In this document: positions 45,647-55,030 of the stretch, piece after piece | How positions within the stretch are numbered: the stretch's first letter is position 1 | How the letters are laid out: every line of letters begins with the position of its first letter | Assembly: GCA_025526935.1 (NCBI GenBank) | Contig: JAHLKD010000114.1 | Coordinates: forward strand, 62,001-126,000 | Source: Cladochytrium replicatum | Taxonomy: Eukaryota > Chytridiomycota > Chytridiomycetes > Cladochytriales > Cladochytriaceae | DNA: 64,000 nucleotides | Direction: 5' to 3' | Translations under genes and position numbers: made by a program | The notes under the pieces: generated by a model | The model's input: the letters and a program-made list of their open reading frames with translations, nothing else | What the model was told of the DNA's origin: nothing | Databases searched by the model: none

Positions 45647-46300
45647 TTATTTATCATTATTAGACGACCCGATGCCCAACTCACTCAGCTCAGTCTCGCG
45701 ACTCACACCCTTCACCCAAACTGCACTCCTACTTGCAGACCCATCCCCAACGATCCCCGCAACATCCACAATCCCCCTCTTCTCAAATCCCAACCTCATA
45801 AACAACTTCTGGCTATTAACATTTTCCGGGTGCGTAAATCCTGCGAAGCGAGAGTGATTTTTAGCCTCTCGGAAATGCTGCATCAGCGCCTCACACCCCT
45901 CGGTCGCATATCCCTTGCCGAAATACTCTGGGAGAAGCATGAAGCCGATGTCGGGGATTTTAGGGCAGGAAAGTGTCGGGTAGCGATTAAGTTGCATGGA
46001 GAGTGTACCGACGTACTCGCGTTCCTTTTCTTCTGTGAATGGAACAGGGGGGTTTCGGAGCGAGATTATGTAGCGGCCGATTCCTGTCGTCGCTAGGCGA
46101 TCGGTGCCGTGTGCAAAGATGGTCCGTGCCTCGGTGATAGATTTGAGCACTGGTGGAGACATGCCGGATTGTGTGAACAGGGCTTGCATTTCGGCACTGG
46201 CAAACATGCGTACCACGAACGACATGTGGTCGTCATTGTCAGGATCGAGGTAGGATAGGTGCAGCCGTGGAGTCGTGATGTGAAACGTGGTGTCGAGCAT
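45647..46300 (-). CDS. GNAT N-acetyltransferase (RimJ/RimL-type)
   Basis: A single exon of 217 residues starting at the ATG of MLDTTFHITTPRL. The start ITTPRLHLSYL, the strand IPDIGFMLLPEYFGKGYATEG (acetyl-CoA-binding motif with the G-K-G-Y-A-T-E turn), EALMQHFRE and ENVNSQKLFMRLGFEKRG are hallmarks of the RimJ/RimL branch of GNAT enzymes. Such enzymes transfer acetyl groups from acetyl-CoA to amines, for example protein N-termini or small metabolites; the substrate cannot be told from sequence. The frame stays open upstream, but the upstream part does not resemble the family, so this ATG is preferred. It is divergent from the candidate gene at 46610. Confidence 0.85.
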   Translation of the reverse strand: MLDTTFHITTPRLHLSYLDPDNDDHMSFVVRMFASAEMQALFTQSGMSPPVLKSITEARTIFAHGTDRLATTGIGRYIISLRNPPVPFTEEKEREYVGTLSMQLNRYPTLSCPKIPDIGFMLLPEYFGKGYATEGCEALMQHFREAKNHSRFAGFTHPENVNSQKLFMRLGFEKRGIVDVAGIVGDGSASRSAVWVKGVSRETELSELGIGSSNNDK

Positions 46301-46609
46301 GTTGACAGTGGTAGCTGTGGTTATCTTTGTGGGTAGCGTGACTTGTGCCTGGTGCTGCGCTTGATGTTTGATTTGAAAGTTTTCTTTGTTTTTCGTGAAG
46401 TGTTGAGAATCGAAGCGTTGGGCGTACCACAGTTGTGTCCTTTGAATCAAACACCACGCTAATTGTGCCAAACCGTATCGAGCGAGAGCTAATCGCCATT
46501 TTGTGTGCTGTGGTTGAATCCTAGATCTGCAGGAAAATACAGCATCACTCGAAAGTTCACCTCCAGGCAGATTGTCCTTTCTGACCGTCGGTTGGAACTT
46601 GCTTTCTAT

Positions 46610-47318
46610 ATGGCCATGCAACCTACAACAATATGGAATTTGATGCATGATGTAAGGTCGGTTTCCAAGATGGGAAGAAGACTTCGACGACATCGAGGAC
46701 ATTATCCATCACCGTTCTCAGTACCGATTTTGGAGCATGTCCGAAGTCGTCTTGAAGATATGGAAATGGTGGTCGTGGACATTCACGTGTCGGGGACAAA
46801 GGAAGCAATTGCCAAACGCATGATCTGGAGGAAGGTAACTTGATTGCCAAACTAATTACCACAGAGCAACGTACACTCGTGGGTTGTTCTTCTTGCCAGG
46901 ATTTGTCTTGCACGTGGGAAGGTATTCAAGCCTTGAAGATAGACGGTCGGTTTCGAAGTCACCGAGTACCGAGACTTGGCGGACGACGATATAGATATCG
47001 ACGGGAGCGCCATCCTTCCATGGTACTGGTCTTTGGAAGGGAAGTTCCCGGGGACAACATGCGTAACTTCCGCACGTCCCTTTGGACGCCAGTATGTTTA
47101 CTTTCCAACTTTTCAACAGATTACCATGCCTAAGGGGAATCTATAGGATCACCGATGTATTCGTTGCGAGTTTGGAAGAACTTCGGATTGCTCCGCATGG
47201 TACTCGCAAGGTTTCACTCCTCAACCTCGCTGCGGACCGCCTTGTGGCTGCTGGAGAGCTTAAGATCTTAACTCCCATGTTCTTCTATGTTGCTAGAATG
47301 CCGCTCACAGCGAACTAA
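46610..47318 (+). CDS. Candidate three-exon gene of unknown function
   Basis: Exons 46610-46834, 46943-47091 and 47147-47318 (181 residues) are proposed. The last junction is convincing: a GTATGT donor and a TATAG acceptor join ARPFGRQ to ITDVFVASLEELRIAP, and the intron is 55 bases. Exon 2 reads VGFEVTEYRDLADDDIDIDG and PWYWSLEGKFPGTT, which looks like folded protein. Exon 1 (VVVDIHVSGTKEAIAKR) is less certain and needs a 108-base intron, long for this region. No signal peptide or membrane helix is present. I do not recognise the family. It might also be a shortened remnant of a larger gene. Confidence 0.4.
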
Positions 47319-48267: not shown

Positions 48268-50948
48268 ATGACGAAGTCATCTGAGAAGGATTCGGTAGTT
48301 CTCGGCAGCAACCACTGGGAGTCTTCTGATACAATCAAGGAAATCGCAGCTTCAGCTGGCGGGCATCTGTCACCATTGCAGCATGAACATCTTCAAACTG
48401 ACGTTCCAACGGCTGTCTGCCACGGAAGAGTGGAAAACTTGGAAAGCAGGGTCCCACAACAGTGGTGGAAAACTGTCTTTGCTGATGCGATGTACCTTAA
48501 GACGGATGGAGATGTCGTAGAAGATCCAGAGATAACGAAGGACGAAGTGGCTCTATTGGAGGCTGATCCGCACATTCGAGAAATCCTTCAGAAGGGGAGT
48601 GGTGGTTCGAAAGATCAACCTGGTGAGTAGATTGATTTGGGACGGACTACGGTCGTTTGTATTTAAATACGGTCTTGTCCTTAGCAAAAGTTCTGGATCT
48701 GTGCTGCGGACAAGGTCGTCACATTATACATCTTGCAAGACAGTATCCGAATCTTCGTCTATATGGTCACGATCAGTCATCATACCTAATATCCCTTGGG
48801 GAAGAGAGAACAGCACAGCAGAACTTGGCAGCCCAGACATCATTCACTGTCGGGGACTGCCGCAAAATCCCATACCCAGATAGTTCCTTTGACCTGGTCT
48901 TGGTAATGGGGAACTCATTTGGTTACTTTTCTGATGATGACGGAGATCGGATCGTCCTGAAAGAGATCAATAGGGTGCTGGTCCCTGGCGGCCGGGTCGT
49001 TCTAGATCTTACCGACGGGCGGTACATGCGTGAAAACTTCATGCCACGAAGTTGGGAATGGATCGATGATACATGCTTTGTCTGTCGTGAGCGACAGCTC
49101 AGTAACGATGGTCTCCGTCTGCATTCTCGAGAAGTTGTGACAGTGACGACGCAAGGAGTAGTTAGGGATCAGTTCTACCAAGAGCGACTTTACAGTCGGT
49201 CAGAGATGAAGGAGCTGGTAGAGCAATGTGGCTTTATTGTGCTAGCTGATGAGCAGGCGGAAGAAGATGCCGCTGTAATAACGAGCGCAAAGGAGCTGAG
49301 CAAGCGAAAAGAAGATCTCGGCATGATGGAGCAGCGCTTGTTGGTTAAAGCCCAGAAGATGACCGTTACTGAAACATCACCCTCAAGGACCCTCGGGCTG
49401 CCTGAACACCCTCTTGATCGACGCACCGGTGCACTCACCGCTCAAGCAGCAAAGCGTGTCACAATCACTCAACACACTCCAGCACCACCTCCATTCGAGA
49501 ACCTTGTGGTTATTTTTGGAGACACTTCAAAACCATGTGTTGGAAAGTTCAATAACACATGGAACCAAGAGGACTTTGCGACTCGTCAGAATTTGCTGGA
49601 CATTTTATACGACTTCTATCCTCAGCTTTCGGAAGCAGACGACGACGCCTCTAGCAGTGCTGCAACTTCAGACAGTGGCTCACTCAGTGCTTCTACTGCC
49701 ACCAGCACCGCTTGCTCGTCTGCAGATCGGAATGCAGCGTCCGCATTGACCCCTCAGTCGAACGGACCTGTACAAGCAGCCCAACATCAGACTGTTTCAA
49801 CATCGCCTTCTGCTCAACTGGGACGACTCACCCGACTTTCGGTATTGGACTGCCACAAAACACTCCACCATACTCTTGCTACCGCCTATCCTGCTCCGTC
49901 ATTCGTGTTCAACCTTTGCGACGAAGGATTCGATAATGAAGCAACGCAAGAGCTTCACGTTCCTGCGATCCTCGATATGCTCAAAATCCCGTACACCGGA
50001 GCCGGACCCAACTGTCTTGCGTATTGCTATGACAAAGGTCTCGTTAGTCGAACCGCGCAAGCGCTCGGCGTCCCGACCCCAAAGGAAACGTACTTCTTTG
50101 CGGAGTCTAGCGCCAAGCGACAATCTATAAAAGAGGAGGGCGAGAATGTCGACGTCGTGCAACTTGAAAACTCGTCTATCACTCTGCAATCTGAGCCGAC
50201 CACCGAGGCAGAGATAGTTTCCGCATCCAAGTTGTGCTCGAAGGATGTCGATCGTTTGCACTCCATTATTACAGAGGAGATTGGATACCCGGCGTTCATC
50301 AAACCACTCCGTGGTGACAACTCTCTTGGGATTACGGCGACCCGAGCTATCGTTACCGACAAAGAAAATCTCGCAACATCTTTACACGCTATCGTTCACG
50401 ATCATGGAATTAATGACGTTATTGTTCAGGAATACTTGAGTGGAACAGAGTACACCATCGGCATGGTCGGTAACACCGGAACTGGGTTTCACTTCTTCCC
50501 CGTCCTCGAGGTTGACTACACAAAGATCATCGAGAAGCAACTTCCGCCAATTCTCGGGTTCGAGTCGAAGTGGGACCCGAATTCGCCATACTGGACCGAC
50601 ATTTCTTTCCGTGAAGCTAAGGGCCTTCCGGTTGAAGTTGTGGAGGATATCAAGCGGTGGTGTATCCTTCTGTGGGAACGATTCGGGTGTCGAGACTATG
50701 CACGGTTTGACTTCCGCGCAGACATTCCCAACCCAGATGATGCTGATGGGAAGGGGAAATGGGGGCAGCGTGTTCCACAAGTCAGGTTGCTTGAGATCAA
50801 CCCCAACCCGGGATGGTGCTGGGACGGTAAATTGGCACACATGGCCAAGCTGGAGGGTATCGAGTATAAGGATCTCATTCGGATGGTGTTGCAGGCAGCA
50901 TGGGACAGATCATCTCATGGGAGCGAATCAAACCCCACAAAACCCTGA
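48268..50948 (+). CDS. Fusion of SAM-dependent methyltransferase and D-Ala-D-Ala ligase-like ATP-grasp enzyme
   Basis: Exons 48268-48622 and 48685-50948 (872 residues). The junction G|CA restores the SAM-binding motif AKVLDLCCGQGRHIIHLA (about 119-136). The upstream piece WWKTVFADAMYLKTDGDVVED belongs to the same methyltransferase. SFTVGDCRKIPYPDSSFDLV, GNSFGYF and VLVPGGRVVLDL are its later motifs. After a linker, an ATP-grasp ligase follows. FVFNLCDEGFDNEATQEL, PAILDMLKIPYTGAGP and DKGLVSRTAQALGVPTP are typical of D-alanine-D-alanine ligases. YPAFIKPLRGDNSLGI, VIVQEYLSGTEYTIGMV and LLEINPNPGWCWDG (Glu ~822, Asn ~824) form the ATP/Mg site. A Ser-rich insert (~434-498) breaks the ligase N-lobe. 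Fungi lack peptidoglycan, so a role in making a methylated peptide or amino-acid derivative is inferred. No signal peptide. Confidence 0.88.
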
Positions 50949-51249: not shown

Positions 51250-52756
51250 CTAAGGACACTTGTCGTCGCTGGGAACAACAGCGACTGCAATTAGCTCTAC
51301 CGGTTTGGCTATCGGATCTTTCAGATGCTTGGACGAAAGGTCCTTTTCGGCACTCTCAAAGTCCAACTCTTTGATAGTTCCATCATTGGCACGCTTGACT
51401 CTTGGAGACCCTCCTTTCCCGGTCGTACTTTTCGCCTGACTTCCTTTGTAGTAGAGTGCCGCAAACACAACAATGGCACCGATCCATTGAATGGGAGTGA
51501 GCGGATGAGCAAAGATCATTGCCGAGAGGAAAACAGAGATGAACTGGCGAGTGGTCATGATAGTGGAGAAAACGAGTGCGCCAAACTTTGAGGGATACGA
51601 GAGAATTAGAAATAAAAAATACAGGGATATAAATATACAATAGAATGGTGTACCTCTTTGATGCAGATATAGATCATCATCTGGCCCAGGCTCGAGCAAA
51701 ACGAAAGGGTCAGTGCATCCCAGATCACATCTGGGTACTTTGCTGCAAAGGCGATGGCACCGGGAATTTTGTTTGGAGGGAGGTAGCCCTTTGACAGGAA
51801 AAGATCTAAGGGAACAAGAAGAACTGGCCGGAATGGTAAGATACTAGTGGTGACCGGTCGTTGCCAGCGACTTACGTCCGACGCTGATAATCATTGAGCA
51901 CAGACTAATGTACAGCATTTGATTGTACGTTGTCATTTCGTAGCCTTTGAAGAGACGCTCTTGTGCAGTGGATGTAAAGCCGTCGAAGAACAAGTATGTT
52001 GACATGAGTATCAAACCGATGATGGTGTCGCTACGATCTGACCCGGACGAGGAGTTCTGAACCAGATTTATCGATTAATTTTTGGTTTCAGTTGTTCAAT
52101 CTCAAAACAACGTACCCCGCATGTTAGAAACAGGGTGCATCCAGCGGTGATCGCCAGTGCGGCGAAATAGTCCTTCGTGCTGTACTTGACCTTTCTGCCG
52201 CCCACGCAGCATCCAGTAGCTCCAATGATCATCACGGGAATCATTTTCGCACATTTTCCAAGTGTCTGCGTTGGGAAGCTGACATACTTGAGGGCTTCGT
52301 ATTGGGAGAATGTGCTCGCAAAATTTGATCCCGCAATGGCAAAGTAGGACAAAATCGGAGCAACGGGAAGCCATAGCGATCTCATGTTGGACGCTGGCAA
52401 AGATCCAGGTCCGGAGAATAAGATGTCTATGATGGACTTTTTGGCGAGCATTATGACGGCCACGATCACGCTGACAATCCGATTGATGAGGACCAGCAAT
52501 GCTGTGTCTTGGAACTTTTCACCGGATTCGCCTGGATTTGGAAAGGACAGGAGGTTCAAAACGCCATTTGTGTGGAGATCAGGCCAGCGATCTGTAAATT
52601 ACCATATGGTTTCGTCATGATCCTTTCCTGCATGACTCCGTAGCCAACGAACAGAGAGATCATGGAGCTGGCTACAAAGATAAGGCGAAGGAGGCGGCTC
52701 GATCGCAGTGATCCGCCTGGACAACATGCCGTTAACCTGGCACCCATTTCGCTCAT
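51250..52756 (-). CDS. SLC35B2-like nucleotide-sugar/PAPS transporter
   Basis: Five exons: 52756-52603, 52531-52116, 52056-51876, 51805-51654 and 51585-51250 (412 residues). Family marks are GYGVMQERIMTKPYG, FASTFSQYEALKYVSFPTQT followed by LGKCAKMIPVMIIG, the FDGFTSTAQERLFKGY loop, and GALVFSTIMTTRQFISVFLS followed by GAIVVFAALYYKG. These fit the SLC35B branch, most closely the adenosine 3'-phospho 5'-phosphosulfate (PAPS) transporter of the Golgi, which supplies sulfate for sulfotransferases. The related UDP-galactose transporter Hut1 is the main alternative. About ten membrane helices are visible. The C-terminal 50 residues are polar and probably cytosolic. The first intron (71 bases) was placed so that PYG continues into GEKFQDTALLVLINR, as in the family. 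Confidence 0.85.
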
Positions 52757-53091: not shown

Positions 53092-55030
53092 GTGTACAAA
53101 ACTTTGGATGCTTTGCGAAAGAACAATGTCGACATCGCAAGTGCCGCCATCAAGACATTTGTGAGCGAGACCAGTGCCCAATCTGGGAAAGGATGCCAGC
53201 TTCTTGAAACCCGCTTCATTAAGATTAAGCAACGATGTACTCGGTCCTACCATTTTTCTCCGCTCAGCTTAAAACCATTGTGGAGTTGATTGTAGCCGAA
53301 TATTGTACATTACAAAGAACGGGACACGCGCTGGACATCGGGGGGTGGGGTAGTGAGCTAAACCCGTTGCTGAGAAGGAAACATAGCATCAGCGAAAACC
53401 TCGGAGATCTGCATTTGAACGGCACCAACACTCGATTCAACTGGATTAATGAGCCGAACGATGTTGATGGCCAAACTACCCTGCACATTGCCTCAAAGTT
53501 GGGTCGATCTGACATCCTTAAACTGATGTTTGAGACGCACATCTTTGACGACCCGTTACCTGACTCAGGTGGAAAGACGGCAGCCGATCTCGCGAGTAAT
53601 GAACAGGCTGCAGAAGTCATCCGTGGCTGATCTCGCTGAAGCACAGCATCATGAATCTTTAGAGCAAAACGGGCCATCTCAAACGGATGTCACTGGACAG
53701 TTTGCCGACGAAAGCCGTACTGAAGAACCCAGCTGGGGAAGACACTACTGCTGCACTTGCACCTCCTGCCAAGCTTGATGAAATCATGCCCTCGCGACCA
53801 TCATTGGCAGCTTCGGAAGCTTCGGGAGCTTCACTATCCAAGATGCGCGCCAGTCAAGATATCTTCTATGAAGCGCCAACGCATTTCAATGGACAACAGG
53901 CGAATAGCAAATCTTGGCGATGAAGACGAAGATGAGTTTTATGATGCGTTTGACAAAAGTCCGAAGATGCCCATCGCCGCTACTAGAGTTAACAAATGCC
54001 ACCACAGCTCCCACAAAGAACTCAAACTCTCACATCATAGAGAAGATGTTTGGGTTCGAGGTTTACAACCCAGAAGATGATGACAAAATTGTACAACCGA
54101 GGAGCCTATTTCGATTCAGCACATGGGGCTCTCGAGAAGGCAGTCGCAAAAGCTCTATTCGTTTCAGCGGACGACCTTGCGGAGTCGATGAATGGGTATG
54201 CACCGTTCAGTCAAGCTTGTACACGATTGCCTTTGGACCCCAGTGTGCCATTTGACATCCGGTGCGTTCTTCTCAAATAAATAAAAAAAAGATCGACGAA
54301 TGTTTGTAAACATTCTGACAATTCGTTCAAGCCTATATCAGTGCTTGCCATTGTGAGTCCTCAGATTACTTGTTTTGGACGGAGGTCAACTTCAAATCAA
54401 GTTCTGGGGGAAGAGCCTTGCAATTCATCCCCTGGGGTCATGCCATGTCCGACTTCGTTTATACGGTCCGAGCGCGGGGGAATGTGATTCGGTCTGAGGT
54501 ATGCAAAAAGTCAATGCTCCCTTTGGATAAAACTAAGGCATTTCGATAAAGCATTACAGCTGGAGGAAAGTGACAACATGCTTGACCAACCTCATTGTTC
54601 GGCAAGATGTGTGGATCGATCACTTTGTCGACCTCACATGTCGAGACTGGTGGACCGGCCGAAGAGGGCACCCTGACGTACAAGCCAAAGTCCGTCTGTG
54701 GATGGTTCAGCTTGGGGAAGGGGGGAGTGGTGGTGGCGAGGATTCAAGCAGCAGCTTGGAAAGCGCAGACAGCGAAATTGTGGGCGTCGTCAACGACAAC
54801 ACCGGATAGTGCGCTACGAGGTCCGCGGATACTGGGGGCATCGCGCTGATCGCCCACGTCACTCCCGGCACCACTGGATCCCGCGGGATCTCTTCTCCAC
54901 TCCGCGGACGTGGAAAGCGCAGGAGGAGATTGGGGAGGAGAGGTGGATCCCACGGTGGTTTGTGAGAGAGGCCAGCGCCTTGGAAGTGCATTTGAAATTT
55001 ACGTGTGAGTATTGGAAAATACGCAGTGTA
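53092..55030 (+). pseudogene. Ankyrin-oxysterol-binding protein (Osh1-like) relic
   Basis: Parts of an ankyrin-ORP protein appear in the right order but in changing frames. First come VYKTLDALRKNNVDIASAAIK and an ankyrin repeat (NDVDGQTTLHIASKLGRSDI, GGKTAADLASNEQAAEVI, 53450-53627). An FFAT-like motif in an acidic stretch (DEDEFYDAFD, about 53925-53955) would bind VAP proteins at the ER. The sterol/lipid domain follows: ISACHCESSDYLFWTEV, then KFWGKSLAIHP one frame over (about 54398-54430), WRKVTTCLTNLIV with WIDHF, TYKPKSVCGWF, and a final ERWIPRWF with EYWKIR. Several frame changes have no introns of normal length to explain them, and the NPLLGE and HHPP parts appear lost. Upstream to 52757 no start is clear. 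Confidence 0.6.

What the first reader, a model, noticed from the sequence alone, without database searches (positions are those of the whole stretch)
48268..50948. Methyltransferase fused to a D-Ala-D-Ala ligase-like ATP-grasp enzyme in a fungus
Seen: one spliced gene with a full SAM-binding motif (DLCCGQGRH) and a full ATP-grasp ligase (DKGL..., LLEINPNPG). Known: D-Ala-D-Ala ligases build bacterial peptidoglycan, which fungi lack; relatives such as MysD join amino acids in natural-product pathways. Inference: the protein may make an N- or O-methylated dipeptide or amino-acid conjugate with no NRPS, or may descend from a bacterial gene pair that was transferred and fused. The Ser-rich insert inside the ligase N-lobe is also unusual.
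Basis: partly seen in the sequence, partly recalled or inferred. Interest (0 to 1): 0.8.

Follow-up and report, generated by a model that had tools for sequence, protein, structure and literature searches.

The report
Fused methyltransferase and amino-acid ligase
A water-living fungus carries one protein that joins a methyl-adding enzyme to an enzyme resembling the bacterial one that links two amino acids; the same ready-made fusion is found in bacteria of several phyla and in swimming-spore fungi and choanoflagellates, has no function on record that I could find, and probably makes a small methylated amino-acid conjugate.

Summary
The gene is real and the 872-residue, one-intron model holds. 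The window is Cladochytrium replicatum, a chytrid, which has a second copy. The fusion is not peculiar to this fungus: full-length relatives with the same domain order occur in zoosporic fungi (chytrids, blastoclads, Rozella, an aphelid, Olpidium), in four choanoflagellate-type proteins, and patchily in bacteria of several phyla. Eukaryotic copies form one clade in trees of the whole protein, of the methyltransferase and of the ligase, so this fungus did not itself fuse a transferred gene pair. The ligase half has the D-Ala-D-Ala ligase fold and ATP machinery, but substrate-site positions are changed, including Tyr216 to Trp; 'D-Ala-D-Ala ligase' is probably the wrong name. The methyltransferase half is nearest to the bacillithiol N-methyltransferase NmbA. 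A minority of bacterial copies sit beside amide hydrolases, most clearly an M32 carboxypeptidase in 12 of 117 distinct fused loci. Best explanation: one enzyme makes an aminoacyl amide or dipeptide and N-methylates it. Substrates unknown. My paper searches found no characterised member.

The parts
48268..48622 (+). Exon 1 (residues 1-118 and first base of codon 119): disordered N-terminus and start of the methyltransferase N-terminal region (WW...YLKTDGDVVE)
   Evidence: model pLDDT under 50 for residues 1-45
48623..48684 (+). Intron, 62 nt, GTGAGT...TTAG, phase 1
   Evidence: P0001 uses the same junction; no RNA data were available
48685..50948 (+). Exon 2 with stop codon
48424..49364 (+). 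Class I SAM methyltransferase domain, about residues 53-345 (span includes the intron); DLCCGQGRH motif I; limits set by me from conservation
   Evidence: Pfam; NmbA match; fold (on a bacterial member)
49365..49490 (+). Linker, about residues 346-387, predicted disordered
   Evidence: pLDDT under 50 at 347-380
49491..50945 (+). Ddl-like ATP-grasp ligase domain, residues 388-872
49650..49841 (+). Ser/Thr/Ala-rich insert in the ligase N-lobe, absent from the paralogue

Best explanation
A bifunctional small-molecule enzyme. The ATP-grasp half uses ATP to phosphorylate the carboxylate of one amino acid (or similar acid) and couples it to the amine of a second molecule, giving an aminoacyl amide or dipeptide. 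The methyltransferase half then transfers methyl from SAM to a nitrogen, most likely the free alpha-amine of that product, as its nearest characterised relative NmbA does on the cysteine nitrogen of bacillithiol. The product would be an N-methylated dipeptide-like metabolite, perhaps a stress protectant, which dedicated amide hydrolases in some bacteria could recycle. Shown here: both folds (predicted), kept ATP/Mg and SAM residues, changed substrate residues, the old fusion, and amide hydrolases beside a minority of bacterial copies. Inferred: both activities, the order of steps, N rather than O methylation, substrates, and physiological role.
For: Ligase half: equivalents of DdlB K97, K144, S151, K215, R255, D257 and E270 are kept in 226-228 of 228 sequences (N272 in 228, but it lies in the motif by which rows were chosen). 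The Y216 equivalent is Trp in 227 of 228; at the S281/L282 site stand Asp (228), Gly (226) and Lys (225). NCBIfam Ddl models score far below cut-off (83.3 against 243 bits for P0001). Methyltransferase half: NmbA is the best PDB sequence match (E 1.5e-20 with the fungal sequence, 1.2e-32 with a bacterial profile) and has the highest identity (30%) among the 50 structural neighbours listed, many of which are N-methyltransferases (CypM, TylM1, DesVI, CcbJ, KedS8, GSMT, GNMT; activities partly recalled). Context: among 127 fused bacterial loci, 117 of them distinct, an M32 carboxypeptidase follows on the same strand in 12 distinct loci, 24-95 bp between the aligned pieces: the 10 Nitrospinota loci with 61-62% identity to P0102, and 2 gammaproteobacteria whose M32 shares only 35-37% identity with that of L076. 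An AstE/AspA-type amidase lies within 1.5 kb in 5 loci. A protein with a GNAT-like stretch and an acetylpolyamine-amidohydrolase-like domain lies beside it in 4 loci.
Against: No substrate or activity was tested. Most bacterial loci share no neighbour; the Nitrospinota loci come from one phylum and are not independent. In the C. replicatum genome, searched in six frames without regard to introns, M32 has no match and only the deacetylase part of the GNAT-deacetylase protein finds matches, the best 34% identical, so those partners are not obligatory. The structural neighbours of the methyltransferase also include C-methyltransferases (SgMT, PsmD, SeMT) and RebM. The DdlB E15 position does not align to an acidic residue.
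Confidence: 0.5

Rival explanations
1. Carboxyl (O-) methylation: the methyltransferase esterifies a carboxylate, as a lasting cap or as a removable protecting group, and the ligase joins the other end, as in pathways with cryptic methylation.
For: CysG of the cystargolide pathway is a SAM-dependent carboxyl methyltransferase in a pathway that also uses ATP-grasp enzymes for coupling (PMC11427300, passages read). Hydrolases lie beside some bacterial copies.
Against: The methyltransferase is nearest in sequence to an N-methyltransferase, and many structural neighbours of known function are N-methyltransferases.
Confidence: 0.15
2. Polyamine conjugation: the ligase attaches an amino acid to a polyamine or diamine, and the methyltransferase methylates the conjugate.
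For: The neighbouring deacetylase domain is closest in the PDB to acetylpolyamine amidohydrolases (E 1.1e-67 for the L110 protein) and carries a GNAT-like stretch. The AstE/AspA-type neighbour in L088 matches the diaminobutanoate deacetylase DoeB far below its cut-off (72.5 against 402.7 bits). A deoxyhypusine-synthase-like gene is next to one copy (L140).
Against: Seen in few of the 127 fused loci; the GNAT match is weak, in L122 only E 0.029; the fungus shows no GNAT-deacetylase fusion as far as searched.
Confidence: 0.15
3. A low-molecular-weight thiol or redox cofactor pathway, analogous to N-methyl-bacillithiol.
For: NmbA relationship (PMC12719100 abstract, sections 2.1 and 2.4 and the first part of 2.3 read).
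Against: No thiol-pathway gene showed among the commonest neighbour families (first 25 shown), though thiol genes were not searched for by name. The NmbA paper reports no eukaryote with the complete bacillithiol pathway.
Confidence: 0.1
4. A true D-Ala-D-Ala (or D-Ala-X) ligase kept from peptidoglycan metabolism.
For: Fold and ATP site; automatic names.
Against: Changed substrate residues; scores far below the NCBIfam Ddl cut-offs; no peptidoglycan family among the commonest neighbour families shown.
Confidence: 0.05

Closest known systems
D-Ala-D-Ala ligase family (DdlB, VanA, D-Ala-D-Lac ligases)
   Same: Fold over the domain and the ATP/Mg residues
   Different: Tyr216 replaced by Trp, no Ser at the Ser281 site, HGxxGEDG replaced by CDEGxxND; below NCBIfam cut-offs; fused to a methyltransferase
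NmbA, bacillithiol N-methyltransferase (PDB 9RI2)
   Same: Best sequence match, covering the N-terminal WF...LYLK region, the core and most of the C-terminal part
   Different: About 30% identity; a 266-residue stand-alone protein; its substrate's pathway is reported from no eukaryote
N-acetylglutaminylglutamine amide synthetase (Ngg): acetyltransferase fused to ATP-grasp, with a peptidase in its operon (architecture recalled, not tested)
   Same: Idea of an N-capping domain fused to a dipeptide ligase, with a peptidase alongside
   Different: Methyltransferase instead of acetyltransferase; not compared by sequence
MysD of mycosporine-like amino acid biosynthesis
   Same: Ddl-like ATP-grasp joining amino acids (recalled)
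   Different: Not fused to a methyltransferase (recalled); sequence not compared here

Membership tests
D-Ala-D-Ala ligase (Ddl) | Ddl fold over the whole domain | tested here: met
D-Ala-D-Ala ligase (Ddl) | ATP/Mg and phosphate residues (DdlB K97, K144, K215, R255, D257, E270, N272; roles recalled) | tested here: met
   Kept in 226-228 of 228 sequences; N272 lies in the motif by which rows were chosen
D-Ala-D-Ala ligase (Ddl) | D-Ala site: Tyr216 and Ser281 (roles recalled) | tested here: not met
   Trp in 227 of 228; Asp-Gly-Lys at the Ser281 site, where the alignment may be off by one
D-Ala-D-Ala ligase (Ddl) | HGxxGEDG signature (recalled) | tested here: not met
   NLCDEGF.ND instead
D-Ala-D-Ala ligase (Ddl) | Score above NCBIfam Ddl model cut-offs | tested here: not met
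   P0001 83.3 against 243 bits and 76.5 against 245.65 bits
D-Ala-D-Ala ligase (Ddl) | Makes D-Ala-D-Ala | not testable with these tools
   needs an enzyme assay
Class I SAM methyltransferase | Rossmann-like core and motif I | tested here: met
NmbA family | Sequence similarity over most of the protein | tested here: met
   profile E 1.2e-32, positions 25-257 of 287; 30% identity over 204 aligned residues
NmbA family | Host makes bacillithiol (BshA/B/C) | not tested
   the NmbA paper reports no eukaryote with the complete pathway; not searched in this genome
Ngg (N-acetylglutaminylglutamine synthetase) | N-terminal acetyltransferase domain (recalled) | tested here: not met
   methyltransferase there instead
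MysD | membership by sequence | not tested
   no MysD sequence was compared

The most novel reading that the evidence does not exclude
An uncharacterised N-methylated dipeptide-like metabolite is made by a single fused enzyme that was present before fungi and choanoflagellates parted, and was kept mainly in opisthokonts with swimming or wall-less stages, while animals and the non-swimming fungi lost it: an ancestral opisthokont pathway shared with patchily distributed bacteria. Against the second half: no name of the swimming gut fungi appears among the listed hits, and only four choanoflagellate-type proteins do.
Probability: 0.3. Interest if true: 0.7.

Novelty: new variant of a known kind. 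Interest (0 to 1): 0.5.

Why it matters
Fungi are not expected to keep a Ddl-type ligase, yet this fused form runs through the zoosporic fungi and reaches choanoflagellates, while no other fungus and no animal is named among the listed hits. If it makes an N-methylated dipeptide without an NRPS, it would be a compact biosynthetic enzyme, an unrecognised metabolite of early fungi, and a correction to many automatic 'D-alanine-D-alanine ligase' labels. The question is directly testable with one purified protein.

Tried and rejected
Universal operon partner: rejected. Clustering of ORFs in 80 loci, again in 99 loci, and Pfam tallies of 132 nearest-neighbour proteins gave no shared partner. The script chose 182 proteins from 97 fused loci; I gave 132 of them to Pfam and left out 50, among them most of the M32 and GNAT-deacetylase neighbours that I already knew, so understate those. 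L134 was left out of the choice as a supposed duplicate, wrongly (one search shows it is none). Shadow ORFs in G+C-rich contigs make these lists noisy, and some anchors were misassigned.

M32 carboxypeptidase in the fungus: no match. GNAT-deacetylase fusion in the fungus: only the deacetylase part, best match 34% identity. Plasmid carriage of the bacterial gene: no match at E 1e-30. A methyltransferase beside ligase-only relatives: none seen, but with only 0.5-1.3 kb upstream in three of six. Relation between the two domains: none seen.

The NAGGN and cryptic-methylation analogies were kept only as analogies or rivals. Papers: all ten searches used; one search looked for PDB 9RI2 only, and asked side questions. 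PMC7826186, PMC11532494, PMC4431377 and PMC11427300 were seen as passages; PMC12719100 as abstract, sections 2.1 and 2.4 and the first part of 2.3. PMC7213984 was seen in a search listing only. Supplementary files could not be read.

Tree cautions: rows were chosen by both motifs and by length (249 of 277 kept; 228 after removing rows over 90% identical). Of the 71 eukaryotic rows 21 are unnamed metagenome proteins that I counted as fungal by their score. The tree has no outgroup and only best hits were sampled; the root used was arbitrary. The 28 rows dropped were mostly fragments and divergent copies.

Full report
WHAT IS THERE. The gene starts at 48268 and ends at 50948, with one 62-nt intron (48623-48684) and an 872-residue product. 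Pfam finds a class I SAM methyltransferase (Methyltransf_25, E 2.7e-20) and a Dala_Dala_lig_C domain (E 1.8e-14), both above cut-off. The best database match is the window's own protein, BJ742DRAFT_685858 of Cladochytrium replicatum, annotated with 775 residues; a paralogue, BJ742DRAFT_676591, lies on another contig of the same genome, 80-92% identical by piece. The NCBI model removes two stretches. The Ser-rich insert is absent from the paralogue.

HOW WIDESPREAD. A search with the window protein gave 3152 proteins at E <= 0.001 among 7998 scored candidates; 120 were listed. The named eukaryotic ones are zoosporic fungi (Chytridiomycota in the broad sense with Gonapodya and Caulochytrium, Blastocladiomycota, Olpidium), Rozella, the aphelid Amoeboaphelidium, and the choanoflagellates Monosiga and Salpingoeca; two further EukProt proteins group with the latter. 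A profile of 28 eukaryotic members found 2245 proteins, 120 listed; every named row above the best bacterial one (783 bits) is of these groups, the other rows there being unnamed. No yeast, mould, mushroom, Mucoromycota, gut-fungus or animal name appears among the listed rows; lower-scoring relatives below the listings cannot be excluded. Surveys of whole genomes, each including the carrier chosen as centre, show patchy carriage at E <= 1e-100: 6 of 246 in the phylum of G001, 14 of 385 in the class of G005, 9 of 369 in the class of G002, 12 of 77 in the phylum of G004 and 17 of 68 in the phylum of G006. In five of the genomes (G589, G591, G800, G850, G999) the match covers only the ligase; G477 has one of each kind. 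No plasmid record matched at E 1e-30.

ORIGIN. In FastTree trees of 228 sequences (71 eukaryotic, 157 bacterial), all 71 eukaryotic sequences, all 67 counted as fungal (21 of them unnamed metagenome proteins) and all 4 choanoflagellate-type ones form clades in the full, methyltransferase-only and ligase-only trees; local support is 0.97-1.0 except 0.77 for choanoflagellates in the methyltransferase tree. [quoted passage not shown] This fits one ancient acquisition of an already fused gene, followed by descent and loss. There is no outgroup, and an early transfer between lineages is not excluded. Six bacterial ligase-only relatives (45-54% identity in the ligase) show that ligase and methyltransferase can part, or had not yet joined. 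None had this methyltransferase in the fetched DNA, but upstream room was 7.9, 6.6 and 7.9 kb in three and only 0.5-1.3 kb in the others.

NEIGHBOURS IN BACTERIA. Of 133 loci examined, 127 are fused, 117 of them distinct, and 6 ligase-only. An M32 carboxypeptidase follows on the same strand, 24-95 bp between aligned pieces, in 12 distinct loci: the 10 Nitrospinota loci with 61-62% identity to P0102 (one with an internal stop in the fusion) and two gammaproteobacteria (L077, L110). Two other Nitrospinota loci (L127, L128; 49% identity) lack it; a third (L129) has only 391 bp downstream and says nothing. A protein with a GNAT-like stretch and a deacetylase domain closest to acetylpolyamine amidohydrolase lies divergently beside L077, L110, L121 and L122; partial or deacetylase-only matches lie near four more distinct loci (L058, L071, L125, L140). 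An AstE/AspA-type amidase lies within 1.5 kb in five loci (L033, L041, L071, L088, L111). A peptidase S15 relative lies within 1 kb of three ligase-only loci, 5.1 kb from a fourth, and beside one fused locus (L065). No partner is general, and M32 was not found in the fungus. The theme is an amide-making enzyme next to amide-breaking ones in a minority of loci; chance was not computed.

READING. The best account is a bifunctional enzyme that makes an aminoacyl amide or dipeptide and N-methylates it (0.5). Rivals are carboxyl methylation, polyamine conjugation, a thiol cofactor, and a true Ddl. It is already visible in databases under automatic names, one being 'D-alanine-D-alanine ligase-like ATP-grasp enzyme/SAM-dependent methyltransferase' (P0055). 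Paper searches aimed at it and around it showed no study of it in their listings; only open-licence papers were searchable. I rate it a new variant of a known kind: known parts, uncharacterised combination, wider and older than the finding supposed.

Noticed in passing
window 49585-49779 and about 50148 onwards: The NCBI gene model (P0001) treats two in-frame stretches as introns (limits read by me); the first removes a stretch that 225 of 227 homologues have, so the public annotation looks wrong there.
   Followed up: partly
G000 contig C23:96477-99165 (minus): A second copy of the fusion in the same genome, 80-92% identical by piece and without the Ser-rich insert.
   Followed up: partly
L110:9211-10965, L077:7995-9716, L121:7701-9422, L122:9254-11002: A bacterial protein with a GNAT-like stretch ahead of an acetylpolyamine-amidohydrolase-like deacetylase domain (closeness tested on the L110 protein), an acetylase/deacetylase combination for which my one search listed no description.
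   Followed up: partly
L093-L098: Ligase-only relatives, five of six seen to have NPNPAW for NPNPGW; three lie within 1 kb of a peptidase S15 relative and a fourth is about 5 kb from one.
   Followed up: partly
L140:9732-11090: Deoxyhypusine-synthase-like gene about 300 bp downstream of one fused copy.
   Followed up: no
L072:12093-13028: HamA-family gene (PF08878) about 110 bp downstream of a fused copy in a planctomycete contig.
   Followed up: no
window 45647-46708 (minus), 51250-52600 (minus), 53229-53630 (plus): Flanking genes: GNAT acetyltransferase, UAA-type nucleotide-sugar transporter, ankyrin-repeat protein; no sign of a biosynthetic cluster among these three.
   Followed up: no
alignment, position of DdlB Ser150: Lineage-specific residue at one substrate-side position: Ser in 156 of 157 bacteria, Asn in 66 of 71 eukaryotes, Gly in the four choanoflagellate-type proteins.
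   Followed up: no
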